A stretch of 64,000 nucleotides of DNA from contig NZ_LMSA01000002.1 in assembly GCF_001427985.1 (NCBI RefSeq), positions 908,544 to 972,543 on the forward strand, written 5' to 3'. Made by a program: the position numbers and the translations under genes. The notes beneath the pieces are model-generated. The model did no database searches. It worked only from the letters and a program-made list of their open reading frames with translations, and had not been told where the DNA came from. The DNA comes from Knoellia sp. Soil729. Its GTDB lineage: Bacteria > Actinomycetota > Actinomycetes > Actinomycetales > Dermatophilaceae. This document shows, piece by piece, positions 16,908 to 34,324 of the stretch; the first letter of the stretch is position 1, and every line of letters starts with the position of its first letter.

Positions 16908-17741
16908 ATGAGCGAGTCGACCTCACCCGCACCGGCAGAGTCGGTCGACGCGCCGGGTGGTGTGATCGAGGGACTGGAGGCCCGGCCGGCCTGGGCACAG
17001 CTGCTCATCGCGCTCTCGCCGTTGAGCGTCATCCTCGCCGCCTATGCCGTGGCCCAGTGGCTCACCGCTCCCATCTCGCACGGACGCATCCGCGAGGGTG
17101 ACGCCAACCGGCTGGGTGCCGGGCTGCACGTCTCCGGGCCGGCCGGTGCCGACGGCGCGCTCTTCGGCGAGGTGCCCACCGTGTGGCTGCAGGAGCGGCT
17201 CGCTGGTCAGGGAGGCCACTGGTACGACGCGCTCGCCTCGGTCGTCTACCTCAGCCACTACATCGTGCTGCCGCTGGTGACGGCCTACGTCTGGTTCCGC
17301 CTGCGCGACGAGTTCAGGGCCTGGATCCGGGCCGTCCTCATGCTCACCGTCGGGGCCATGACGACCTATGTGCTCTACCCCGCGGCGCCGCCGTGGCTGG
17401 CCTCCGACCTCGGGGTCGTGGCGTCGGTGGAGCGGCTGTCCGCGTCGGGCTGGGACCACCTCGGGCTCGGCGGGGTCGGCTCGCTGCTCGCGAGCACGCA
17501 GGCGGGCAGCAACCCGGTCGCCGCCATGCCCTCGCTCCACGCGGCGGTCCCCGTCCTCATCGCGGTGTTCATGTGGTCGGTGTCGCGCCGGAGGTGGCGC
17601 CTGGTGGCGTGCGCGTATGCCGTCGCGATGGCCCTGACCCTCGTCTACACCGGTGAGCACTACGTCGTCGACGTGGCGGCCGGTTCCCTGGCCGCGCTCG
17701 TTGCTGCCCTCGCCGGTCGAGCGACCACGACGACGAAGTAG
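16908..17741 (+). CDS. PAP2-family membrane phosphatase/phosphotransferase
   Basis: 277 aa from the ATG at 16908. Six hydrophobic segments carry the PAP2/Aur1-like active-site motifs APPW (160-163), PSLHAA (208-213, H211) and YTGEHYVVDVAAG (247-259, with H251 and D255). It resembles the inositolphosphotransferase-like PAP2_3 group. It lies 68 bases upstream of crtB in the same direction. A role in dephosphorylating prenyl diphosphates or lipid phosphates is possible but not shown. Transcriptional linkage to the carotenoid operon is plausible. Confidence 0.85.
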   Translation: MSESTSPAPAESVDAPGGVIEGLEARPAWAQLLIALSPLSVILAAYAVAQWLTAPISHGRIREGDANRLGAGLHVSGPAGADGALFGEVPTVWLQERLAGQGGHWYDALASVVYLSHYIVLPLVTAYVWFRLRDEFRAWIRAVLMLTVGAMTTYVLYPAAPPWLASDLGVVASVERLSASGWDHLGLGGVGSLLASTQAGSNPVAAMPSLHAAVPVLIAVFMWSVSRRRWRLVACAYAVAMALTLVYTGEHYVVDVAAGSLAALVAALAGRATTTTK

Positions 17742-17750
17742 GTTGAGGCG

Positions 17751-17813
17751 ATGAACGTGGACGCAGGGGCGGGCCTGCATCGCACCGGTCGCCTCCCCGG
17801 AAGCGCGGCGTGA
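17751..17813 (+). CDS. 20-codon ORF overlapping crtB start
   Basis: ATG at 17751 follows AGGTTGAGG at good spacing and reads MNVDAGAGLHRTGRLPGSAA to a TGA at 17811-17813. The stop overlaps the crtB GTG (GTGA, 17810-17813), the same coupling used between all later genes of the operon. It could be a translational leader or the scar of a lost upstream gene. In related operons crtE often precedes crtB and is absent here. Too short for any homology claim. Confidence 0.35.
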   Translation: MNVDAGAGLHRTGRLPGSAA

Positions 17814-18730
17814 CTCCGCGCGGTCCGTGGCCGACGGGTTCGTCAGCGCGCCCACTCACCGACGAGGAGCGCTACGACCGCGTCGCCCGGGAGGCGGCGG
17901 GCCTGGTCATCGGCGCCTACTCCTCCTCGTTCGGCCTTGCCTCCCGCCTGCTGCACGAGCCGGTGCGCGCCGGGGTGCGTGACGTCTACGCGTTCGTGCG
18001 CCTGGCCGACGAGATCGTCGACGGACCGATGGGCGTCTCCCGTCCCGAGCTCGCCGAGCAGGCCCTGCGCCGGCTCGAGGAGGAGACGGCGGTGGCACTG
18101 GAGCACGGCTACAGCCCCAACCTCGTCGTGCACGCCTTCGCCGGGACGGCCCGGCGGCACGGCATCGACCGCGAGCAGATCGACCCGTTCATCTCCTCGA
18201 TGCGGATGGACCTCACCAGGTCCGTCCACGACGAGGCGAGCTTCGCCGAGTACGTCAACGGGTCCGCCGAGGTCGTCGGCCTCATGTGCCTCAAGGTCTT
18301 CCTCCACGCCGACGGGTCGCAGGGCACGGCGGGCAGCCGGGGCACGCTGGCAGCGCAGCTCGAGCCCGGGGCCATGCGCCTGGGGGCCGCCTTCCAGAAG
18401 GTGAACTTCCTGCGCGACCTCGCCGAGGACTACCAGTCGCGCGGGCGCCGCTACTTCCCCGGCATCGACCCGGAGCACCTCACCGAGGCCGAGAAGCACC
18501 GCCTGCTCGACGACATCGACACGGACCTGGCGGCGGCGCAGCCGGCGGTCGACGGGCTGCCGCGCAGCAGCCGCGCGGCGGTGGCCGTCGCGCACGCGCT
18601 CTTCCTCGAGCTGTCCCGACGCCTGCGTGCGACCCCGGCCACCACGATCTGCAGCTCCCGGGTGCGCGTTCCCGGCCTGGTCAAGAACCGGGTGGCCGCC
18701 GCCGCACTTCTCCGGGCGCGCCGGTCATGA
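17810..18730 (+). CDS. crtB: Phytoene synthase
   Basis: 306 aa. Both Asp-rich substrate motifs of head-to-head prenyl synthases are present, ADEIVD (66-71) and RDLAED (202-207), followed by YQSRGRRYFP. It condenses two GGPP into phytoene. The start is a GTG at 17810 coupled to a 20-codon ORF. It is the first enzyme gene of a seven-gene operon in which every junction overlaps or nearly overlaps. No GGPP synthase (crtE) is in the window, so GGPP must come from elsewhere. Confidence 0.95.
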   Translation: MTPRGPWPTGSSARPLTDEERYDRVAREAAGLVIGAYSSSFGLASRLLHEPVRAGVRDVYAFVRLADEIVDGPMGVSRPELAEQALRRLEEETAVALEHGYSPNLVVHAFAGTARRHGIDREQIDPFISSMRMDLTRSVHDEASFAEYVNGSAEVVGLMCLKVFLHADGSQGTAGSRGTLAAQLEPGAMRLGAAFQKVNFLRDLAEDYQSRGRRYFPGIDPEHLTEAEKHRLLDDIDTDLAAAQPAVDGLPRSSRAAVAVAHALFLELSRRLRATPATTICSSRVRVPGLVKNRVAAAALLRARRS

Positions 18731-20373
18731 GCGCGCCCCGGAAAGCCGTCGTCATCGGCGGAGGCATCAGCGGGCTCGCGTCGGCCGCCCTGCTCGCGCG
18801 CGAGGGCTACGACGTCGACCTGTTCGAGCAGGGGGAGCAGCTCGGCGGTCGTGCCGGCCGGTGGTCACGCGACGGCTTCCGCTTCGACACGGGTCCGTCG
18901 TGGTACCTCATGCCCGACGTCTTCGACCACTTCTTCCGCCTCATGGGGACCACGACGCAACGCGAGCTCGACCTCGTGCGTCTCGACCCGGCATACCGCG
19001 TCTTCTTCGAGGACGAGGGGCAGCCGCTGGACGTCCGCTCCGGGCACGACGAGGTCATCGCCCTCTTCGAGCAGGTCGAGCCGGGCGCCGGACGGGCCAT
19101 GGCGCGTTATCTCGAGTCCGCGCGCACGACGTACGACCTGGCGGTCCAGCGGTTCCTCTACACGTCCTTCGAGTCGTTCACCCCGCTCGTGCGCCGCGAC
19201 GTCGTCTCGCGGCTCGGGCGGCTCGGCCGGTTGCTGGCCCAGCCCCTCGACCGGTTCGTCGCTGCCCACGTGAGCGACTCCCGGCTCCAGCAGGTCCTCG
19301 GCTACCCGGCGGTCTTCCTCGGCACCTCGCCGGGACGCGCGCCGAGCATGTACCACCTCATGAGCCACCTGGACCTCGTCGACGGTGTGCGCTACCCCCG
19401 CGGCGGCTTCTCGCGCCTCGTCGACACCCTCGCCGGGCTGGCCGAGGGTGCGGGTGCCCGGCTGCACACCGGTGCCACCGTCACCCGTGTGGTCACCGAA
19501 CTCCTCGCTGACGGCCCACGACGGGGTATGCCGGGTGCTCACCTTCGCGACCGGGCCCTGCGTCGTGACCGGGTTGCCCGCGCCACCGGCGTCATGGTGC
19601 GCGACGGTGGTGACGAGCGCTTCCACGCGGCCGACGTCGTCGTCGCGGCCCACGACCTGCACCACCTCGAGAGCGCTCTGCTGCCTGCGGAGCTGCGGGA
19701 CCACTCGGCGCGCTGGTGGGACCGGCGCGACCCGGGCCCGGGCGCGGTGCTCGTGATGCTGGGCGTGCGGGGCGGCCTGCCCGAGCTGGCGCACCACTCG
19801 CTGTTCTTCACGCGCAACTGGCAGGAGCACTTCGACGTCATGCACGGCTCGGGGGACCCGATGCCCGACCCCGCCTCCATCTATGTCTCGCGCACCTCGG
19901 CGACCGACCCGTCCGCCGCACCGCAGGGGTGCGAGAACCTGTTCATCCTCGTGCCGGTCACGGCGGACCCGGGGCTGGGCCGAGGTGGCGAGGACGGTGC
20001 CGGCGACCCCGGTGTCGAGCAGATCGCCGATGCCGCCATCTCCCAGGTCGCGCAGTGGGCCGGGATCCCCGACCTCGCCGCACGCGTGGTCGTGCGCCGC
20101 ACCATCGGCCCGGGCGACTTCTCCGGCGACCTCAACGCCTGGCGCGGCGGGGCCCTGGGGCCGGCACACACCGTGACGCAAAGCGCCTTCCTGCGTGGAC
20201 GCATCTCCTCACGTCGCGTCGCCGGCCTGCTCTACGCCGGGGCGAGCACGATCCCCGGCATCGGGCTGCCGATGTGCCTCATCAGTGCCGAGGTCATGCT
20301 CAAGTCACTGCGCGGCGACGTCTCGACCGGCCCCCTGGCCGAGCCGGCCCTCGACGAAGGACGTCCGGCGTGA
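18727..20373 (+). CDS. crtI: Phytoene desaturase
   Basis: 548 aa, ATG 18727 overlapping the crtB stop (ATGA). N-terminal FAD-binding VVIGGGISGLASAALLAREG (8-27), GGRAG, and the C-terminal CrtI signature YAGASTIPGIGLPMCLISAE near residues 503-522. It should dehydrogenate phytoene to lycopene. A charged insertion around residues 260-285 (DGPRRGMPGAHLRDRALRRD) is less typical and contains an octamer copy at 19526. Confidence 0.95.
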   Translation: MSAPRKAVVIGGGISGLASAALLAREGYDVDLFEQGEQLGGRAGRWSRDGFRFDTGPSWYLMPDVFDHFFRLMGTTTQRELDLVRLDPAYRVFFEDEGQPLDVRSGHDEVIALFEQVEPGAGRAMARYLESARTTYDLAVQRFLYTSFESFTPLVRRDVVSRLGRLGRLLAQPLDRFVAAHVSDSRLQQVLGYPAVFLGTSPGRAPSMYHLMSHLDLVDGVRYPRGGFSRLVDTLAGLAEGAGARLHTGATVTRVVTELLADGPRRGMPGAHLRDRALRRDRVARATGVMVRDGGDERFHAADVVVAAHDLHHLESALLPAELRDHSARWWDRRDPGPGAVLVMLGVRGGLPELAHHSLFFTRNWQEHFDVMHGSGDPMPDPASIYVSRTSATDPSAAPQGCENLFILVPVTADPGLGRGGEDGAGDPGVEQIADAAISQVAQWAGIPDLAARVVVRRTIGPGDFSGDLNAWRGGALGPAHTVTQSAFLRGRISSRRVAGLLYAGASTIPGIGLPMCLISAEVMLKSLRGDVSTGPLAEPALDEGRPA

Positions 20374-20726
20374 ACCTGCAGCAGTGGTCCTATGCCGCGA
20401 TGCTCGTGTTCTGCCTCATCGGCACGCTTCCCCTCGAGGTCGCCTTCCGCCTCGGCGTCCTGCGCCGCGTGGGTGCACTCTCCCTCACGGTCGTGCTCGC
20501 GGCCGGTCCCTTCCTGGTGTGGGACCTGTGGGCCACCTCCGTCGGTCACTGGAAGTTCGACCCGGCCCAGACCCTGCCGTGGCGGGTGGCCGGGGTCCCG
20601 CTGGAGGAGGTCGGCTTCTTCGTCGTCATCCCGCTGGCCGGCATCCTCACCTACGAAGCCGTCCGCACGCTGCGAGGTCGCCGGGCCGGGGCGCGAGCAT
20701 CGGCACAACAGGTGAGCGCCCGGTGA
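20370..20726 (+). CDS. crtYc: Lycopene cyclase heterodimer subunit, first
   Basis: 118 aa, GTG 20370 overlapping the crtI stop (GTGA). Three transmembrane segments and the cyclase motif VPLEEVGFF (about 75-83), where PxE is diagnostic of the CrtYc/CrtYe and CarR family. Small heterodimeric cyclases act with the next gene product. The CrtYc name assumes beta-cyclisation of C40 lycopene, since no C50 elongase (crtEb) is present. A CrtYe-like activity is the alternative. Confidence 0.85.
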   Translation: MNLQQWSYAAMLVFCLIGTLPLEVAFRLGVLRRVGALSLTVVLAAGPFLVWDLWATSVGHWKFDPAQTLPWRVAGVPLEEVGFFVVIPLAGILTYEAVRTLRGRRAGARASAQQVSAR

Positions 20727-21058
20727 GCTACACCGCGCTTGCCGCCGTGGCCGTCGTCCTGGCGCTCGCCCTCGACCTCTGGGCGCTGCGGACCCGCCTG
20801 ACCACCACGAGCACCTGGTGGCTGTCCTACGTCATCGTCGTCGGCTTCCAGCTGCTCACCAACGGCTGGCTCACCGGCCGCGGCATCGTGCGCTACGACG
20901 GCGACGCCATCCTCGGCAGTGAGCGGATCACCTTCCTCGGGGACGGGCGCATCGCCTTCGCTCCCGTCGAGGACCTGGCGTTCGGCTTCGCGCTGGTGCT
21001 CGCGACCTGTGCCGTGTGGGTCCGGCTGCGCGGTCCGGTCGAGGAGCCGGCGTCATGA
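20723..21058 (+). CDS. crtYd: Lycopene cyclase heterodimer subunit, second
   Basis: 111 aa, GTG 20723 overlapping the previous stop. Three transmembrane segments and the related motif APVEDLAFGF (84-93). Partner of the preceding subunit: the two halves together equal one fungal CarR-type cyclase domain. The stop overlaps the P450 ATG (ATGA, 21055-21058). Confidence 0.85.
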   Translation: MSYTALAAVAVVLALALDLWALRTRLTTTSTWWLSYVIVVGFQLLTNGWLTGRGIVRYDGDAILGSERITFLGDGRIAFAPVEDLAFGFALVLATCAVWVRLRGPVEEPAS

Positions 21059-22437
21059 GCGGGACCAGCACCTCGCAGAAGTGGTCACCGACGGACCTGG
21101 GCATCGACGGCCCGAGCGCGCTGGACATGGCCCGGGCGTTCCGCTCCGTGCGGGCCGACCCGCTGACCTTCCTCGCGGACCTGCGGGCGCGGTACGGCGA
21201 CCTCGTCGCGCTGCCGGTGCCCGGCCCACCCGCGCTCCTGCTCAACGACCCGGCCGACATCCGCCGCGTCCTGCAGACGTCCGCCCGGCACTGGACCAAG
21301 GACACGGTGCAGTACACCGCGCTTCGACGTGTCACGGGTGACGGACTCCTCGCGACGGCGAAGCCGACGTGGCTGGAGCACCGCCGGATCGCCGCACCGG
21401 CCTTCCACCACGAGCGCCTGGCCGGGGTCGGGGAGCAGGTTCGGGTCGCGACCGACGAGGCGCTTCGTTCGTGGCAGCCCCTGCCTCAGGCCGGCCGCAC
21501 GGTGGACGTGCTCGAGCTCACGACGGGCGTGGCGCTCGACGTGGTCGGCCGGGCCCTGTTCTCGGCCGACCTGTCGTCTCGGGCCGAGCGCCTGCTTGCG
21601 GCCACCGGCGCGGCTGCGGGACTCATCGTGCGCCTGGGCCGCTCCATCCTCCCCATCCCGGAGTGGGTTCCCACCCCGCTGCACCGGCAGCTGCATGACG
21701 CCCGTCGCGAGCTCGACCGCCTCTGCGGCGAGCTCATCGTGGCGCGCCGCGCAGGGGCCAGCCAGTCCCATGGTGACGACCTCCTGGGCCTTCTCCTCGA
21801 CAGCGGGATGGACGACGAGGCGGTGCGCGACGAGCTCGTGACCATGGTCATCGCCGGTCACGAGACGGTGGCTGCCGGCCTCGCGTGGACCCTCATGCTC
21901 CTGGCCGAGGACGAGGACGCGCAGGCCCGGGTGCGAGCGGAGCTCGGCGCCCTCGGTGACGAGCTGCCGCTCGTGGGTGCGGACCGGGTCGCCCCCTGGA
22001 CCCGGGCGGTCGTCGACGAGTCGCTGCGCCTCTACCCTCCGGCCTGGGCCCTGTCCCGCCGCGCGACGGCCGAGGACGTGCTCGGTGGGCACGAGGTCCC
22101 GGTGGGGACGCTCGTGATCATCAGCCCCTGGCTCGTGCACCGCCATCCCGGACGCTGGAGCGACCCCGAGGCGTTCCGCCCCGACCGCTTCCTCGACGGC
22201 GCGAGCGGGGCGGCGCTCGACCGGGGCTACCTCCCCTTCGGCGCCGGTCCCCGTCTGTGCATCGGGCGCGAGTTCGCCCTTGGTGAGATGGTCATCGTCC
22301 TCAGCCGGCTGCTGCGGCAGCACCGGCTCAGCGTGCCGTCCGGCTGGGTTCGGCCCAGGGTTGAGGCGAGGGTGGCGCTCCACCCCGTGGGGGGCATGCC
22401 GCTCGTCCTGTCCCACACCGGCGAGCAGTCACCGTGA
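21055..22437 (+). CDS. Cytochrome P450
   Basis: 460 aa. I-helix AGHET (267-271), ExxR in DESLRLYP (321-328), PERF-like RPDRF (375-379) and heme-binding FGAGPRLCIG with C402. Family resembles bacterial fatty-acid/terpenoid-type P450s of the CYP4/CYP102-like fold. Placed between the cyclase subunits and the glycosyltransferase, it most likely hydroxylates the carotenoid to create the site for glycosylation. Redox partners are not encoded nearby. Confidence 0.92.
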   Translation: MSGTSTSQKWSPTDLGIDGPSALDMARAFRSVRADPLTFLADLRARYGDLVALPVPGPPALLLNDPADIRRVLQTSARHWTKDTVQYTALRRVTGDGLLATAKPTWLEHRRIAAPAFHHERLAGVGEQVRVATDEALRSWQPLPQAGRTVDVLELTTGVALDVVGRALFSADLSSRAERLLAATGAAAGLIVRLGRSILPIPEWVPTPLHRQLHDARRELDRLCGELIVARRAGASQSHGDDLLGLLLDSGMDDEAVRDELVTMVIAGHETVAAGLAWTLMLLAEDEDAQARVRAELGALGDELPLVGADRVAPWTRAVVDESLRLYPPAWALSRRATAEDVLGGHEVPVGTLVIISPWLVHRHPGRWSDPEAFRPDRFLDGASGAALDRGYLPFGAGPRLCIGREFALGEMVIVLSRLLRQHRLSVPSGWVRPRVEARVALHPVGGMPLVLSHTGEQSP

Positions 22438-23585
22438 CCCCGCTGCTGGTCCTGCTCCTCGTCGTTGCGGCGGCCCTCGCTGTGCGGCGCCAGCTTGCCG
22501 GCCTCACCGCCCTCGTGCCCCTGGCCGCTGAGGTCCCACCCGCAGGAGCGCCCGAGGTCTCTGTCGTCATCCCGGCGCGCAACGAGGGACATGCCCTGCC
22601 GCGCCTGCTGGGCTCCCTCACCGCGGCGGCGCCGTGGCTGTGCGAGGTCATCGTGGTCGACGACGGCTCGAGCGACGACACCGCCGCGGTGGCTCGCGCC
22701 GCGGGGGCCACTGTCCTCTCGGCCCCACCCCCGCCGGACGGATGGACCGGCAAGGCCCGGGCCTGCCACCTCGGAGCGCAGCACAGCACCGGGAGCGTGC
22801 TGCTCTTCCTCGATGCCGACACGAGCCTGGCACCGGGCGCCCTGCCCGCGCTGCTCGAGGAGCACGTTCGACATGGTGGGCTGCTCTCGGTGCAACCCCA
22901 CCACGAGCCGCTCGAGGCCTACGAGCAGCTGTCGAGCTACTTCAACCACGTGTCCCTGGTGGGCTGTGGCGCGTTCACCCCACGAGGGGCGCGCCGACCC
23001 ATGGCCTTCGGTCCCTGCCTGCTCACCACCCGCGCCGACTACGCGCGCGCTGGTGGGCACGCGGGCGTGCGGGCCGCCATCCTCGACGACGCCGAGCTCG
23101 CGGCCTCCTACGGACACGTCGGCCTGCCCGTCACCTGCCTGATCGGCGGCGAGGCGGTGCGGATGCGCATGTACCCCCGCGGCCTGCGCCAGCTCGTCGA
23201 GGGCTGGACCAAGAACATGGCCTCCGGGGCGACCGAGGCCGAGCCACTGTCGTCCCTCGTCGCCGTGGCATGGGTGTCGACCCACTTCGCCGTGGCCGCT
23301 GGCCTGGTCGGTGCGGGAGTCGACCTCGCCACGGGAGCCGACCTCCCCTCCACGGCCCTTGCCTGGCCCATCGCGTATGCCGTCGTCGCGGCCGAGATGC
23401 GACGTCACCTCCGCCGCATCGGCACCTTCCGGTGGTGGACCTGGGCGGTCTTCCCGGCGCCGCTGCTCGCCTTCGGGCTGATCTTCGCCCGGTCCCTGGT
23501 GCTGACGCGGGTGCTGCGGTCGGTGCGGTGGAAGGGTCGCGCCGTCGCCCTGTCGCCCAGCAACAGCGCCCACGAGGAGGGCTGA
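22434..23585 (+). CDS. GT2 glycosyltransferase, CrtQ-like (carotenoid glycosylation)
   Basis: 383 aa, GTG 22434 overlapping the P450 stop (GTGA). One N-terminal membrane segment, then the GT-A fold: VSVVIPARNEG (43-53), VVDDGSSDDT (73-82), FLDADTSL (124-131, DxD), and C-terminal membrane helices. This arrangement matches 4,4'-diaponeurosporenoate glycosyltransferase (CrtQ) of the staphyloxanthin pathway. The sugar donor is probably a UDP-hexose. By position it glycosylates the P450-hydroxylated carotenoid. Confidence 0.85.
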   Translation: MTPLLVLLLVVAAALAVRRQLAGLTALVPLAAEVPPAGAPEVSVVIPARNEGHALPRLLGSLTAAAPWLCEVIVVDDGSSDDTAAVARAAGATVLSAPPPPDGWTGKARACHLGAQHSTGSVLLFLDADTSLAPGALPALLEEHVRHGGLLSVQPHHEPLEAYEQLSSYFNHVSLVGCGAFTPRGARRPMAFGPCLLTTRADYARAGGHAGVRAAILDDAELAASYGHVGLPVTCLIGGEAVRMRMYPRGLRQLVEGWTKNMASGATEAEPLSSLVAVAWVSTHFAVAAGLVGAGVDLATGADLPSTALAWPIAYAVVAAEMRRHLRRIGTFRWWTWAVFPAPLLAFGLIFARSLVLTRVLRSVRWKGRAVALSPSNSAHEEG

Positions 23586-24094
23586 TGCCCGTCTTCACTC
23601 TGCCGCTGCCCGCGACCGTGCTCGTCGACATCGTGGCCTGGGGCCTCTTCCACGGGGCCACCGGTCTGCTGGCACACCGCCTCGGGGAGCACCGGCTCCA
23701 CGCCGACGGCTGGCTGCTGCGGCAGCGCGGCTTCGAGGACGGCGGCCGCTGGTACCGACGGGTCTGGCACATCCAGCGCTGGAAGGACCGGCTCCCCGAA
23801 GCGGGGGCGCTGTTCGCCGGCGGCGTGAGCAAGCGCCAGCTCCCCAGCGCCGACACCCAGGGGTTGCACCGGTTCGTGCGCGAGACGAGGCGGGCCGAGC
23901 TGACCCACTGGTGGGCCATGGCGTGCGGTCCGCTGTTCGTCCTGTGGAACCCGCCCTACGCCTCGGCCATCCTCATTGCCTACGGGATCGGGATCAACCT
24001 GCCGTTCATCACGATCCAGCGCTACAACCGGTTCCGCATCCAGGACCTCATCGCGCGTCGCGCACGCGCAGCGGGAGAACCGCACCGGGGTTGA
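23585..24094 (+). CDS. Glycosyl-carotenoid acyltransferase (staphyloxanthin CrtO-like)
   Basis: 169 aa with hydrophobic termini. The motif region WYRRVWHIQRWKDRLPEAG, then LFAGGVSKRQL, is typical of glycosyl-4,4'-diaponeurosporenoate acyltransferase, which esterifies the sugar with a fatty acid. The name CrtO is avoided as a symbol because it also denotes a ketolase. ATG overlaps the GT2 stop by one base (TGATG). The last 47 bases overlap the convergent FAD-linked oxidase gene. Confidence 0.82.
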   Translation: MPVFTLPLPATVLVDIVAWGLFHGATGLLAHRLGEHRLHADGWLLRQRGFEDGGRWYRRVWHIQRWKDRLPEAGALFAGGVSKRQLPSADTQGLHRFVRETRRAELTHWWAMACGPLFVLWNPPYASAILIAYGIGINLPFITIQRYNRFRIQDLIARRARAAGEPHRG

Positions 24095-29913: not shown

Positions 29914-30354
29914 ATGAGGTTCCTGCCGCCGCCGGTCACCGTCGGACTCCACGTCGCCACCAGCCCCGACGTCGTCTGGGACCTGCTCACCGACGTGGAC
30001 CAGTGGCCGCTCTGGGGCCCCACCGTGAGCGGTGCCACGGTCGATGGTGTGACCCTCGACGGGCGCCGGCGGATCGGACCGGGCGCCACCGGGACGGTAC
30101 GCACCTCGCTCGGCCCCTCCCTGCCGTTCCGCATCGAGGTCTGGCAGGACACCGGTGAGGTTCGGCGCTGGTCCTGGCGCGTGGCCGGGCTGCCGGCGAC
30201 CAGCCACACCGTCCGTGCTCGCCAGGGGGACTGCCGCGTCGAGATGACGGCGCCGTGGTTCGCGCCGGCCTACACCCCGGTGCTGTGGCTCGGGCTGCGC
30301 CGGATCAGAGGGCTCGCGCAAGCTCGGGCAGCTGCAGCCGGCACCACGGACTGA
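29914..30354 (+). CDS. SRPBCC (polyketide cyclase/START-like) protein
   Basis: 146 aa. ATG 29914 preferred; a GTG at 29905 is in frame. The opening VTVGLHVATSPDVVWDLLTDVDQWPLWGP is the first strand and helix pair of the SRPBCC ligand-binding fold, with VSGATVDGV and IEVWQDTGEVRRWSWRV as later strands. Such proteins bind hydrophobic ligands or act as cyclases/hydroxylases. Its last 50 bases overlap the convergent idi gene, the end of the prenylquinone operon. A role with that pathway is possible but unproven. Confidence 0.82.
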   Translation: MRFLPPPVTVGLHVATSPDVVWDLLTDVDQWPLWGPTVSGATVDGVTLDGRRRIGPGATGTVRTSLGPSLPFRIEVWQDTGEVRRWSWRVAGLPATSHTVRARQGDCRVEMTAPWFAPAYTPVLWLGLRRIRGLAQARAAAAGTTD

Positions 30355-30832
30355 CCTCGCGCCGTCCGGCGAGCACGTCCGCGCAGAACTCCTCCCAGTC
30401 CACCCAGGCGTGCTCCACCACCTCCGACGGGTCCGGCGAGAGGACGTCCGGCTGCGGACAGGTGGCGGCGTAGACCGGGCAGATCTCGTTCTCGACGACG
30501 CCGTCGTCCATGACCGCCCGGTAGCGGAAGTCGGGCAGGACGACTCTCAGGTCGGTGATCTCGGCACCGAGCTCTTGGCTCACCCGACGGCTGACGGCCT
30601 CTGCGGCGGGTTCCTCCGGCGCCGGGTGGCCGCAGCAGCTGTTGGTCCACACCCCGGGCCACGTCCGCTTCGACCAGGCTCGCTGCGTGATGAGCAGCCG
30701 CCCCTGCGGGTCGAACAGGTAGCAGGAGAAGGCGAGGTGCAGTGGGGTGTTGGCGTGGTGCACCTCGGCCTTCGGCGCCGTCCCGATCGGCTCCCCCGCC
30801 TCCGACAGCAGGACCACCCGCTCGACGCTCAT
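30305..30832 (-). CDS. idi: Isopentenyl-diphosphate delta-isomerase, type 1
   Basis: 175 aa with the Nudix-like Idi1 fold. TNSCCGHP holds the catalytic Cys, HLAFSCYLFD the His/metal region, and VVENEICPVY contains the second catalytic Glu. It interconverts IPP and DMAPP. ATG overlaps the flavoprotein stop (ATGA, 30829-30832). It is the last gene of the UbiA-type III PKS operon and supplies prenyl precursor for that pathway and possibly for carotenoids. Confidence 0.95.
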   Translation of the reverse strand: MSVERVVLLSEAGEPIGTAPKAEVHHANTPLHLAFSCYLFDPQGRLLITQRAWSKRTWPGVWTNSCCGHPAPEEPAAEAVSRRVSQELGAEITDLRVVLPDFRYRAVMDDGVVENEICPVYAATCPQPDVLSPDPSEVVEHAWVDWEEFCADVLAGRREVSPWCRLQLPELARAL

Positions 30833-31851
30833 GCCGGCCTCGCCAGCTGGTTGACCGCAGCCCGGAAGACGGTGGGGACCGCGCGCGCCGCAGGGACCAG
30901 GGCCCGGCGCACCACCGGGACGCGCGTGGCCGTGACGAGACCGAGTGTCAGCGCGTCGTGCCGGCGCCGGATCCGGCTCCACGACTTCTCGTATGCCGCC
31001 GGGTCGCCCGAGGCGACCGCGTCCACCGCCGCCCTGGCCTGGGCCATGCCCACGGCGAGCCCCTCGCCGGTGAGCGCATCGACGTAGCCCGCTGCGTCCC
31101 CGACGAGCAGCACGCGGCCCTGCACCCGCCGGCGCGAGCGCTGGCGCAGCGGCCCGGCGCCGCGCACCGACGAGCGGGAGTGCCCGGCGATCCGCTCGCG
31201 GACGAGGGGGAAGTCCTCGAGCAGCTCCTCGAAGGGTCGTCGTCGCGCACTCAGCACGGCGACGCCGATCTCGTCCGGGCCGACCGGCGTGAGGTAGGCC
31301 TCGCCCGCGCTCCCCCAGTGCACCTCGACCAACGACGTCCACGGGGCACAGCGCACGTGCACCCGCTGCCCGTAGCGACGCGGCGAGGTCCGGGCCACCT
31401 CCAGCCCGACCAGCCGGCGCACGGCGGAGTGCAACCCGTCGGCGGCCACCACGTGCCGCACGTCCTCGCCGTCGACCCGCACGTGGTCGCCGCGGTCCTC
31501 GATCTCGGTCACCGGGGACTCGACGACGCGGACGCCAGCCGACTGGACCCGCTCCCGCAGGGCAGCGTGCAGCTCGGTGCGGCGGACGCCCAACCCGGTG
31601 CCCGAGGTGAACCCGGCATCGACGTGGCGGTGCCGGTCGACGTAGCGGATGCCCGTGATCGGGGAGCCGCCGAGCTCCACCCCGAGGTCGCGCAGGGCGG
31701 CGACCGCGCCGGGCATGAGGCCTTCGCCGCAGGCCTTGTCGATCACCCCGGCACGCGGCTCACGCACGGTGACCTCGAGACCGGCGCGGACGGCATACAG
31801 GGCAGTGGCCAGCCCGATCGGTCCGCCACCGGCGATCAGGAGGTCACGCAT
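30829..31851 (-). CDS. FAD-dependent monooxygenase/reductase (AgqC/SrsC or geranylgeranyl reductase-like)
   Basis: 340 aa. N-terminal [20 protein letters not shown] is the FAD GxGxxG fold. ACGEGLMP (40-47) and VLLVGDAAGYVDALTGEGL match the flavin-binding motifs shared by aromatic hydroxylases and geranylgeranyl reductases. In srs/agq clusters a flavoprotein hydroxylates the alkylresorcinol to a hydroquinone. The gene overlaps the methyltransferase by 8 bases and idi by 4. A geranylgeranyl-reductase role cannot be ruled out and would saturate the prenyl group. Confidence 0.8.
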   Translation of the reverse strand: MRDLLIAGGGPIGLATALYAVRAGLEVTVREPRAGVIDKACGEGLMPGAVAALRDLGVELGGSPITGIRYVDRHRHVDAGFTSGTGLGVRRTELHAALRERVQSAGVRVVESPVTEIEDRGDHVRVDGEDVRHVVAADGLHSAVRRLVGLEVARTSPRRYGQRVHVRCAPWTSLVEVHWGSAGEAYLTPVGPDEIGVAVLSARRRPFEELLEDFPLVRERIAGHSRSSVRGAGPLRQRSRRRVQGRVLLVGDAAGYVDALTGEGLAVGMAQARAAVDAVASGDPAAYEKSWSRIRRRHDALTLGLVTATRVPVVRRALVPAARAVPTVFRAAVNQLARPA

Positions 31852-32386
31852 CGCTGCCGACCGTGGCAGGCGGCAACGTGGCGAGCGCGGCGTTCTCGGC
31901 CCGCAGGCGCACGGTGAGCAGCACGGCGTTGGCCAGGGTGAAGGCCAGGGCGGTGACCCACGAGGCGTGGACGAGCGGCAGCGCGACACCCTCGGCGACG
32001 ACCGCCACGTAGTTGGGGTGGGACAGGAGGCGGTAGGGCCCGGACCGCACGGGGGCAAGGCCCGGCACGACGATGACCCGCGTGTTCCAGCGGTGCCCGA
32101 GCGTGAGGATGCACCACCAGCGCAGCGCCTGCGCGGCGAGGACCACGGCGAGCATCGACCACGCGAGAGCCAGCGGCACCACGGGTCGGCGCACGAACGC
32201 CTCGACGAGCATGGCCACGAGGAAGCCGGTGTGGAGGACCACCATCGCCGGGTAGTGGCCGCGCCCGGTCTCGATGCCCCCGCGCGACAGGCTCCAGGCC
32301 GCGTTGCGGTTCGAGACGACCAGCTCGACCCCGCGCTCGGCCGCCACGAGGAGCACGAGGACGACGAACGCGGTCAGGCTGCTCAC
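31844..32386 (-). CDS. ICMT-family membrane methyltransferase
   Basis: 180 aa with about four transmembrane segments. The SAM-binding C-terminal region is [21 protein letters not shown] and [19 protein letters not shown], typical of isoprenylcysteine carboxyl methyltransferase-like and phospholipid methyltransferase-like enzymes. In this operon it most probably O- or C-methylates the type III PKS product, as proposed for SrsB/AgqB. Start overlaps the PKS stop (ATGA, 32383-32386). Confidence 0.85.
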
Positions 32387-33486
32387 GCGTCCCCGTCCTC
32401 GCCGGTGGCCCGCAGGAGGACGAGCTCGGAGCAGAAGCCCGGCCCCATCGCCATGAGCAGGCCGTGGGTGCCCGGGGTGGGAGGGCGCAGGGCGAGGGTG
32501 TCGGCGAGCACGTGGAGCACCGACGCCGAGGAGAGGTTGCCGATCTGAGCCAGGCTGGCCCGGGTGAGCGCCACGTCCTCGTCGGTGAGGCCGAGGGTGT
32601 CACGCAGGGCGTCGATGACCTTGGGGCCGCCGGGGTGGCACACCCACCACCCGATCTCCTCGCGGGTCAGGCCGTGGTCGGCGAGGAACGCGTCGACGTC
32701 GCCGCCGAGGTGGCGCGAGACGATGGCCGGCACCTGGGCGTCGAGGACGATGCGCAGGCCGCTGGCGCCGATGTCGAAGCCCATGGTGCGCTCGCTGTCG
32801 GGATAGAGCCGGCTGCGGCTGCTCAGGACCTCGACCCTCGAGTCGCGGTACGGCCCACCGACGACGACGGCGGCGGCGCCGTCACCGAAGAGGCCGCTCG
32901 CGACGATGTTGGCGACGCTGGTGTCATCGCGCTGGACGGTGAGCGAGCACAGCTCGACCGCCACGAGCACGCCGATGTCGTCGGGGTGTCCCAGGACGTG
33001 GTCGTGCAGCCGGGCCACCCCGGCGGCCCCGGCCACGCACCCGAGGCCGAACATCGGGACCCGCTTGACGTCCTCGCGGAGCCCGACCGTGGCGGCGATG
33101 CGCGCGTCGAGCGACGGGACCGCCAGCCCGGTCACCGTCGTCGAGATGATGAGGTCGACGTCGCGCGGCTCCAGTCCGGCCGCCGCGAGGGCCTTCTCGA
33201 GGGCGCGGGCACCCAGCGCGACGGCGTGCTCGAGGAAGAGGTCGTTGGCCTGGCCGAAGTCCCCCATCGTGAGGTAGCCCGCGAGCGGCTGGACGAGGTG
33301 ACGCTGCTCCACCCCGGCGTTGGCGTGCACCGACCGCAGCAGCCGCTCGCTCGCGCCCGCCTCCACGATCACCTGCGCGAAGGTGTCGGTGATGTCGCGC
33401 TGGGTGTGGCGGTGGTCCGGGAGTGCCGTCCCGACGGAGAGCAGTCGACTGTGCACAGCTGCCTCGATCCGAGCGCCAGGGCTCAT
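32383..33486 (-). CDS. Type III polyketide synthase (alkylresorcinol synthase-like)
   Basis: 367 aa chalcone synthase-fold enzyme. The catalytic triad is present: C150 in [11 protein letters not shown]284 in CHPGGPKV and N317 in GNLSSAS. GFGPG-like loop reads AMGPGF near the C-terminus. It extends a fatty acyl-CoA with malonyl-CoA and cyclises it. Neighbours UbiA, ICMT-like methyltransferase and flavoprotein match the agqABCD and srsABC arrangement, so an alkylresorcinol or related phenolic lipid is the likely product. ATG overlaps the UbiA stop (ATGA, 33483-33486). Confidence 0.92.
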
Positions 33487-34286
33487 CGGGCCACCAGCGT
33501 CACCACGTTGACGAACGCGATGCCGACAGCGGCATAGAAGGGCGCTCGACCGGGGCCGACGAGCGCGAGCACTGCCAACCCTGCCACGCCGATGCCCACC
33601 ACGAGGGCGACGGCGACGTTCGATTCTGACCGCACGGGGCCGGTGACCAGCAACAACGCCGTCGCGACGACGAGGAGGGCGACCGCGAGCAGGATGCTGG
33701 CCCGGCCCCCGATCCGGTGAGGGAGCCCCCGCACACCGGTCGCGGCGTCGTCGGCGAGGTCGGGGACGACGTTGAGCAGGTGGGCCGCCACCCCGAGCAG
33801 CGCTCCCGCGGCAACGACTCCGGGCGGGGCCCAGGAGCCGCCCACCAGGTCGACGAAGACCGGGAGACCGCCGAACGACACGGCATACGGCACCCAGGAT
33901 GCGAGAGTGCCCTTGAGCCACAGGTTGTAGGCCCACGCCGAGGCGACACAGAGCAGGTGCACGGACCCGGCGAGGAGACCGCAGGCCACGGAGAGCACGA
34001 CGGTGGCGGCGAGGGCGAGCGCGCAGGCCTGCCGGACGGTCCTCACGGACAGCGTGCCGTTCGCGAGCGGCTTGTCCGGACGGCCCACTGCGCCGTCCCG
34101 GCCGCGGTCGCGCAGGTCGTTGCACCACCCGACCGACAGCTGTCCCGTCAGGACCGCGGCGGTGACCAGCACCCCGTTGGCGAGCGACAGGTCCGCGGCG
34201 GCCGCGAGCAGGGCCGAGAGCGTGGTCACCGCCAGTGCTGGTCCGAGGTGGGCGGCCTGCAGCAGGAGCCGCCCGCTCGTCTTCAT
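33483..34286 (-). CDS. UbiA-family prenyltransferase
   Basis: 267 aa from the ATG at 34286, preceded by GGGGGA; a GTG at 34304 is in frame. About eight transmembrane helices. The first Asp-rich motif is NDLRDRGRD (56-64) and the second is DLADDAATG, which together bind prenyl diphosphate via magnesium. It transfers a prenyl chain to an aromatic acceptor, by context the type III PKS product (AgqD-like). First gene of a five-gene coupled operon ending in idi. Confidence 0.9.
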
Positions 34287-34324
34287 GTCCCCCAGCCTAG
34301 GCACGAGTGGCTATGGTTCGGTCC

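What the first reader, a model, noticed from the sequence alone, without database searches (positions are those of the whole stretch)
17810..24094. Carotenoid operon joining a cyclic C40-type head pathway to a staphyloxanthin-type tail pathway
crtB-crtI and heterodimeric lycopene cyclase are followed in the same coupled operon by a P450, a CrtQ-like GT2 and a CrtO-like acyltransferase. This predicts a cyclised, hydroxylated, glycosylated and fatty-acylated carotenoid. No C50 elongase (crtEb) and no crtE are present, unlike decaprenoxanthin/sarcinaxanthin clusters of relatives.
Basis: partly seen in the sequence, partly recalled or inferred. Interest (0 to 1): 0.6.

Follow-up and report, generated by a model that had tools for sequence, protein, structure and literature searches.

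The report
Actinobacterial glycosyl-acyl xanthophyll operon
A soil bacterium carries a compact, widely shared set of genes that should make a ring-ended yellow pigment, add a hydroxyl, a sugar and a fatty acid to it, and includes one extra conserved enzyme, related to yeast sphingolipid-making enzymes, whose role in pigment synthesis is unknown.

Summary
The seven genes are real, at the stated places, and form one coupled operon: crtB, crtI, crtYc, crtYd, P450, GT2, CrtO (PF18927). It is not a one-off: P450, GT2 and CrtO stand together in 41 of 65 CrtO loci fetched (mostly Nocardioides; also Knoellia flava, Flexivirga, Luteipulveratus, Kribbella). I expect a zeaxanthin-type glycosyl fatty-acid ester, closer to thermozeaxanthin than to staphyloxanthin, as the genome has no second CrtI-family enzyme over cut-off to make a carboxyl end. 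Two things were missed. An eighth gene, a PAP2_3 membrane protein at 16908-17741, belongs to the set (full-length in 35 of 41 loci, at different ends); its best structural match is AUR1, inositol phosphorylceramide synthase. And crtE, beside crtB in 38 of 39 relatives with linked crtB, is missing here, so GGPP must come from elsewhere, perhaps the prenyl synthase by metF. No pigment was measured. What the AUR1-like protein does is the open question.

The parts
16908..17741 (+). PAP2_3 (PF14378) membrane protein, AUR1-like; eighth member of the gene set
   Evidence: Pfam 111.9 bits, cut-off 27; full-length homologue near crtO in 35 of 41 P450-type loci, plus a remnant in one, at different ends; 4-bp overlap with crtO in 30 of 32 loci where it follows crtO; only PAP2_3 over cut-off in the genome; best structure match AUR1
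17742..17809 (.). 68-bp gap where Knoellia flava has crtE between PAP2 and crtB; most of a 20-codon ORF (17751-17813) lies in it, its stop overlapping the crtB start
   Evidence: small ORF read by eye
17810..18730 (+). crtB, phytoene synthase
   Evidence: PF00494 8e-42; only SQS_PSY match in the genome; no NCBIfam equivalog over cut-off
18727..20373 (+). crtI, phytoene desaturase
   Evidence: TIGR02734 545.7 bits, cut-off 238.1; only one over cut-off in the genome
20370..20726 (+). crtYc, lycopene cyclase subunit, C40 type
   Evidence: TIGR03462 65.9 bits; tree
20723..21058 (+). crtYd, lycopene cyclase subunit, C40 type
   Evidence: TIGR03462 38.2 bits, just under the cut-off of 39.4; tree
21055..22437 (+). 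cytochrome P450, inferred beta-ring hydroxylase
   Evidence: PF00067 235.7 bits; profile matches LUT5 at 5.6e-65 and a P450 of unknown role, 7wzl, better at 1.6e-75; phmmer matches CYP175A1 at 2.3e-40; haem, ExxR and I-helix motifs invariant in the window protein and 6 homologues (motif names recalled)
22434..23585 (+). GT2 glycosyltransferase of the CrtO-linked kind
   Evidence: PF00535 75.2 bits; the 12 P450-type GT2s in the tree form one clade 100/99
23585..24094 (+). CrtO-like acyltransferase
   Evidence: PF18927 102.4 bits, cut-off 27.3
30305..34304 (-). neighbouring block, not part of the operon: idi 30305-30832, FAD oxidoreductase 30829-31851, ICMT-type methyltransferase about 31890-32410, type III PKS 32383-33486, UbiA 33483-34304; the same block follows PAP2 directly in 16 relatives

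Best explanation
The operon is the genome's only visible carotenoid pathway and makes a C40 xanthophyll glycosyl fatty-acid ester of zeaxanthin or cryptoxanthin type. Steps: GGPP from a prenyl diphosphate synthase in trans (perhaps the gene by metF) -> CrtB phytoene -> CrtI lycopene -> CrtYc/CrtYd beta-carotene -> P450 hydroxylates the ring (probably C-3) -> GT2 puts a sugar on that hydroxyl -> CrtO acylates the sugar. The AUR1-like PAP2_3 protein acts on the same product or on a lipid that the pathway uses; its exact step is not known. Shown here by sequence: the genes, the coupling, the conservation, the C40 type of the cyclases, and that no CrtEb-like, FA_hydroxylase (CrtZ) or second CrtI-family protein over cut-off was found in the genome. 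Inferred: beta rings, the C-3 position, the sugar, the acyl group, the GGPP source, and that the acyl tail anchors the pigment in the membrane.
For: Order recurs in other genera. Cyclases fall with a C40 set that includes three CrtZ-linked pairs, split at 100/100 from a set that holds all 8 CrtEb-linked pairs; no CrtEb motif in any of the 65 CrtO loci. CrtZ-like proteins lie near crtO in 4 of 65 loci, none with the P450 nearby; none of the 41 P450 loci has one. In the GT2 tree two CrtZ-type GT2s are the sister group of the P450-type clade (84/87), as expected if both see the same acceptor. The P450 is related to LUT5 and CYP175A1. Where the cyclase genes have left the operon (Luteipulveratus), the genome still holds a pair. 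One crtI_fam over cut-off, no FA_hydroxylase, one CrtB in the genome. GT2 stands beside crtO in all 41 P450 loci.
Against: No pigment chemistry. The best PDB match of the P450 is a P450 of unknown role (7wzl), and many non-carotenoid P450s also match. Two of the four CrtZ-type GT2s (L077, L082) do not group with the P450-type ones, and L082 is a long branch; L082 also has a weak P450 match (31 bits) 7.5 kb from its crtO, its CrtZ is under Pfam's cut-off, and in L071 no cyclase was seen in the stretch. Seven of the 15 cyclase pairs on the C50 side had no CrtEb seen by my motif. PF18927 also occurs in 17 actinobacterial stretches with no crt gene found, so the family alone does not prove carotenoid acylation. 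A 58-bit crtI_fam match (C5:96796) is under cut-off and unassigned. CrtYd is just below both curated cut-offs. The function of PAP2 is not accounted for.
Confidence: 0.6

Rival explanations
1. Same scaffold, but the P450 oxidises another ring position (C-2 or C-4) or makes a ketone or epoxide, so that the product is a glycosyl-acyl ester of a different xanthophyll.
For: Homology to CYP175A1 and LUT5 does not fix the position; the Deinococcus 2-hydroxylase P450 is a recalled precedent.
Against: CrtZ-like proteins (3-hydroxylases; the position is recalled) stand in the P450's place in 4 related clusters.
Confidence: 0.2
2. A C50 carotenoid: a UbiA protein elsewhere, such as the one at 33483-34304, extends lycopene before cyclisation.
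For: A UbiA gene lies 9.4 kb downstream and its homologue follows PAP2 directly in 16 of the 65 loci.
Against: It scores 5.2 bits with a CrtEb profile against 498-634 for the rows that built it, lacks their motif and overlaps a type III PKS gene by 4 bp; the PKS follows it in all 16 relatives too. The other two UbiA proteins are CtaB and MenA; the cyclases are of the C40 type.
Confidence: 0.05
3. True staphyloxanthin-like chemistry: the P450 or another oxidase makes a carboxyl end, the GT2 makes a glycosyl ester and CrtO acylates it.
For: GT2 and CrtO homologues lie beside crtI/crtN-like genes in 7 of 8 stretches opened from the Paenibacillus family.
Against: No second CrtI-family enzyme over cut-off in the genome; the CrtZ exchange points to a hydroxyl acceptor. 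Aldehyde dehydrogenases were not searched.
Confidence: 0.08
4. On the eighth gene only: the PAP2_3 protein is a lipid or prenyl phosphate phosphatase that supports the pathway (for example by recycling a lipid carrier) and does not modify the pigment.
For: PAP2 fold and intact SLH and GEHYVVD stretches; LpxE matches with Z 17.7 and a lower rmsd, and PgpB and others also match.
Against: AUR1 is the best match by sequence, profile and fold, and over the longest span; a fold is not a function.
Confidence: 0.55

Closest known systems
Thermozeaxanthin-type pigments of Thermus (CYP175A1 pathway)
   Same: Expected order of cyclisation, P450 ring hydroxylation, glycosylation, fatty acylation; P450 related to CYP175A1. 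Thermus filiformis is described as a producer of carotenoid-(di)glucoside-branched fatty acid (di)esters (PMC4432349, title and start of abstract in a search listing). The rest of the pathway is recalled.
   Different: In the one Thermus control genome (T. composti) neither the CrtO family nor the CarR/CrtYc-type cyclase was found, so those steps would be of other families; its pigments were not checked.
Salinixanthin and Rhodothermus carotenoid glucoside esters (CrtY, CruC, CruD)
   Same: Cyclic C40 carotenoid, glucose, fatty acid (PMC5822342, passages read).
   Different: The sugar sits on the acyclic end (recalled); GT and acyltransferase are CruC/CruD; no P450 in the passages read. The NCBIfam CruG model matches the window GT2 at 77 bits, far below its cut-off of 600.
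Staphyloxanthin pathway (CrtM, CrtN, CrtP, CrtQ, CrtO)
   Same: CrtO family (PF18927) and a CrtO-linked GT2.
   Different: Cyclases and P450 present; no CrtP/CrtNb-type enzyme over cut-off in the genome.
C50 clusters of actinobacterial relatives (CrtEb, CrtYe/Yf)
   Same: crtB-crtI and a two-gene cyclase.
   Different: No CrtEb-like protein; cyclases on the other side of a 100/100 split.
AUR1 inositol phosphorylceramide synthase (PAP2_3)
   Same: Fold over 227 residues, Z 21.1, rmsd 4.0, 21% identity; PAAPPW, SLH and HYxVD stretches shared.
   Different: NCBIfam's bacterial phosphoinositol dihydroceramide synthase model gives 55 bits, cut-off 480; activity unknown.

Membership tests
CrtO acyltransferase family PF18927 | Score over the curated cut-off | tested here: met
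   102.4 bits against 27.3
CrtO acyltransferase family PF18927 | Transfers a fatty acid to a carotenoid-bound sugar | not testable with these tools
   Needs enzyme or pigment chemistry; 17 family members lie in stretches without crt genes
Staphyloxanthin pathway | CrtP/CrtNb-type oxidase making the carboxyl end | tested here: not met
   One crtI_fam protein over cut-off in the genome, the operon's own CrtI; next best 58 bits against 238
Staphyloxanthin pathway | GT2 (CrtQ) paired with CrtO | tested here: met
   Adjacent, 1-bp overlap; GT2s beside CrtO in the Paenibacillus family are found by the same profile at about 390-420 bits. No reference CrtQ was compared
Staphyloxanthin pathway | C30 synthase CrtM | tested here: inconclusive
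   SQS_PSY domain over cut-off but no NCBIfam equivalog over cut-off
C50 carotenoid cluster | Lycopene elongase CrtEb | tested here: not met
   Three UbiA proteins: CtaB, MenA, PKS-linked; 5.2 bits (PKS-linked) or no match (the other two) with a CrtEb profile
C50 carotenoid cluster | CrtYe/Yf-type cyclases | tested here: not met
   Window pair on the other side of a 100/100 split, 35 rows
Thermozeaxanthin-type pathway | Ring-hydroxylating P450 | tested here: inconclusive
   P450 family over cut-off and related to CYP175A1; reaction not tested
Thermozeaxanthin-type pathway | Zeaxanthin glucoside fatty acid ester as product | not testable with these tools
   Needs LC-MS
Inositol phosphorylceramide synthase / PAP2_3 | PAP2_3 domain with the two histidine/aspartate stretches | tested here: met
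   111.9 bits, cut-off 27; S209-L210-H211 and H251, D255 invariant in 36 sequences, window included
Inositol phosphorylceramide synthase / PAP2_3 | NCBIfam phosphoinositol dihydroceramide synthase cut-off | tested here: not met
   55.2 bits against 480
Inositol phosphorylceramide synthase / PAP2_3 | Transfers phosphoinositol to an alcohol | not testable with these tools
   Needs an assay

The most novel reading that the evidence does not exclude
The eighth gene encodes an AUR1-like phosphotransferase that moves a phosphoinositol (or another phospho-head group) from a phospholipid to a free hydroxyl of the xanthophyll or of its sugar, giving a pigment with a charged head at one end and a glycosyl-acyl group at the other: a phospho-carotenoid lipid not known to me.
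Probability: 0.12. Interest if true: 0.75.

Novelty: new variant of a known kind. Interest (0 to 1): 0.45.

Why it matters
It outlines a self-contained actinobacterial route to glycosyl-acyl xanthophylls, present in about 40 sequenced genomes (41 of the 65 loci) and not described in the papers that my searches listed, suggests a carotenoid role for a P450 clade, and shows that an AUR1-like PAP2_3 protein is a coupled part of a carotenoid operon in many of them. The last point gives a concrete, testable question about what phospholipid chemistry has to do with membrane pigments.

Tried and rejected
C50 reading: rejected after the UbiA inventory, the CrtEb comparison and the cyclase tree. Staphyloxanthin-type carboxyl route: made unlikely by the single CrtI-family protein over cut-off; aldehyde dehydrogenases were not searched. 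PAP2 as a chance neighbour: rejected.

Led nowhere: NCBIfam gave no model for window CrtO and none for the four CrtZ-like proteins (Pfam FA_hydroxylase matched all four, L082 only at 22 bits, under the cut-off of 31). CrtO had no PDB sequence match better than E 1, no Foldseek match at E <= 0.001 and a best Z of 7.1, not above the stated background, so its fold gave no lead. The other two AUR1-based hints are weak as controls go: only one other PAP2_3 protein was tried. The first CrtO alignment used the wrong strand for four rows and was replaced. In one search my PAP2 query was out of frame, mended. In one search the type III PKS query was out of frame; one search repeated it in frame. The CrtEb profile was built from 8 rows, some with wrong starts, and those rows match it by construction. 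The test whether P450-type cyclases form one clade neither rejects nor shows it (p-AU 0.309). Paper searches listed no paper whose title or abstract start describes this operon; only openly licensed PMC papers are held and I opened passages of two, so this is not proof that it is unpublished.

Rows dropped: the cyclase tree used 10 of the P450-type loci (window included), 3 CrtZ-type pairs, L176, L177 and 20 loci; L018 was skipped and the other P450-type loci were not put in. The trees used 34 GT2 and 36 CrtO rows chosen from the loci; L083 and L151 were left out of the GT2 tree because their GT2 hits were split. Of the 20 stretches, 17 showed a CrtO by my profile and 3 none; some are short contigs.
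Full report
What is there. Pfam and NCBIfam identify a squalene/phytoene synthase, a CrtI-family desaturase, two CarR-type cyclase halves (the second just below both curated cut-offs), a P450, a GT2 and a CrtO-family protein. The window lies in a 3.6-Mb genome of high completeness. A same-genus genome, G004, holds a contig of the same length as the Knoellia flava TL1 contig with the same cluster, so the genus is taken to be Knoellia.

It is not unique. A scan of named genomes with the CrtO alignment gave 65 loci. Of these, 41 carry the P450 and GT2 with crtO, 40 of the 41 also have crtYc close by, 4 have a CrtZ-like protein and no P450 nearby, 14 have GT2 without either and 6 have crtO alone or nothing by my profiles. 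The 41 come mainly from Nocardioides, and from Knoellia flava, Flexivirga, Luteipulveratus, Kribbella, Occultella and uncultured actinobacteria. A Segeticoccus contig ends inside the cluster and is not among the 41. In Luteipulveratus the cyclase pair is not in the operon, but the genome holds one elsewhere, beside a prenyl synthase related to the one by metF here. Among relatives, 8 of 98 genomes have the CrtO family, and 36 of 394 in the class. In the genus only 2 of 9 genomes have a CrtB-family gene, the same two that have CrtO, so in Knoellia it is a whole-pathway gain or a remnant of repeated loss.

Which carotenoid. The genome has three UbiA proteins: heme O synthase, MenA, and one in a type III PKS block. 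The last gets 5.2 bits from a CrtEb profile and lacks the CrtEb motif. A tree of 35 cyclase pairs has a split with 100/100 support: on one side 15 pairs, 8 of them with CrtEb seen nearby and 7 without; on the other side 20 pairs, with the window's and three CrtZ-linked ones. No CrtEb motif was found near the pairs L176, L177 and L184-L188 of that side nor in any of the 65 CrtO loci. This agrees with the statement that CrtYcd and CrtYef are homologous and that C40 and C50 actinobacterial lineages exist (PMC2889829, passages read). The genome has one crtI_fam protein over cut-off (the next at 58 bits against 238), no FA_hydroxylase match and one CrtB, so the operon is its only visible carotenoid route.

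What the P450 does. In four other actinobacterial CrtO loci a CrtZ-like protein lies near crtO and the P450 is absent; none of the 41 P450 loci has a CrtZ. Three of the four CrtZ-like proteins pass Pfam's cut-off and one (L082) does not; L082 also has a weak, distant P450 match, and in L071 no cyclase was seen. In the GT2 tree the P450-type clade (12 rows, 100/99) has two of the CrtZ-type GT2s as sister (84/87); the other two fall elsewhere. Two unrelated hydroxylases serving related glycosyl- and acyltransferases point to the same hydroxylated beta ring. By sequence the P450 is related to plant LUT5 and to CYP175A1, though its best match is a P450 of unknown role.

GGPP. A crtE-type gene lies beside crtB in 38 of the 39 P450-type loci that have a linked crtB (all but Luteipulveratus), and in K. 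flava it lies between PAP2 and crtB. In the window these two genes are 68 bp apart. K. flava has three polyprenyl synthases, the window's genome and the other seven of the genus two each. So crtE was lost here or never came along. Of the two left, one lies by a methylenetetrahydrofolate reductase gene, and its homologues stand beside carotenoid genes in Flexivirga, Luteipulveratus and two other genomes. It is my candidate. But no NCBIfam model reached its cut-off for either; the best for this one is a mycobacterial farnesyl/geranyl diphosphate synthase and for the other a nonaprenyl/farnesyl/geranylgeranyl one, so the chain length is not shown.

The eighth gene. 68 bp before crtB lies a PAP2_3 protein. 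A full-length homologue lies near crtO in 35 of the 41 P450-type loci and a short remnant in one more, L063. It stands before crtE and crtB in K. flava, before crtB in Luteipulveratus, overlapping crtYc in Kribbella, and after crtO in the other 32. In 30 of those 32 its start overlaps the crtO stop by 4 bp. The window's genome has only this one PAP2_3 gene over cut-off. A good model (pLDDT 86) matches AUR1 best: Foldseek E 4e-6, Z 21.1 over 227 residues at rmsd 4.0, against 17.7 over 163 residues at rmsd 2.3 for LpxE and 12.8 for PgpB. By sequence AUR1 is the best PDB match of the window protein alone (E 8e-4) and of the profile (E 8e-11); one other PAP2_3 protein, from Luteipulveratus, searched alone as a control had no match at E <= 1. 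The PAAPPW stretch shared with AUR1 is in 30 of 36 sequences. This suggests, but does not show, transfer of a phospho-head group.

Verdict. A new variant of a known kind: a glycosyl-acyl xanthophyll operon built from actinobacterial C40 cyclases, a P450 and a GT2-CrtO pair, with an AUR1-like partner. Related chemistry is known from Rhodothermus (PMC5822342, passages) and Thermus (PMC4432349, search listing only).

Noticed in passing
window 30305-34304 (-): Block of idi, FAD oxidoreductase, ICMT-type methyltransferase, type III PKS and UbiA (UbiA and PKS overlap by 4 bp). The same genes follow PAP2 in 16 of the 65 CrtO loci. A possible meroterpenoid operon linked to the pigment operon.
   Followed up: partly
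window 17751-17813: A 20-codon ORF between PAP2 and crtB whose stop overlaps the crtB GTG start; Luteipulveratus L035 has a different small ORF between the same two genes (read by eye).
   Followed up: no
L025 1360-2235 (-): MerR-type regulator with a DICT sensory domain upstream of the crtE-type gene, with homologues in many of the Nocardioides loci; no homologue found in the window.
   Followed up: partly
L069, L070, L072, L075, L079, L081, L083-L085: GT2-CrtO pairs in Spirochaetota without other carotenoid genes recognised by my profiles on the stretch held.
   Followed up: no
L131-L146, L148: PF18927 proteins in actinobacterial genomes with no crt genes found in the stretch fetched: the family may have roles outside carotenoids.
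   Followed up: no
L176: Flexivirga carries a second carotenoid locus (prenyl synthase, crtI, crtB, cyclase pair, beside a metF-like gene) in addition to the P450 operon.
   Followed up: partly
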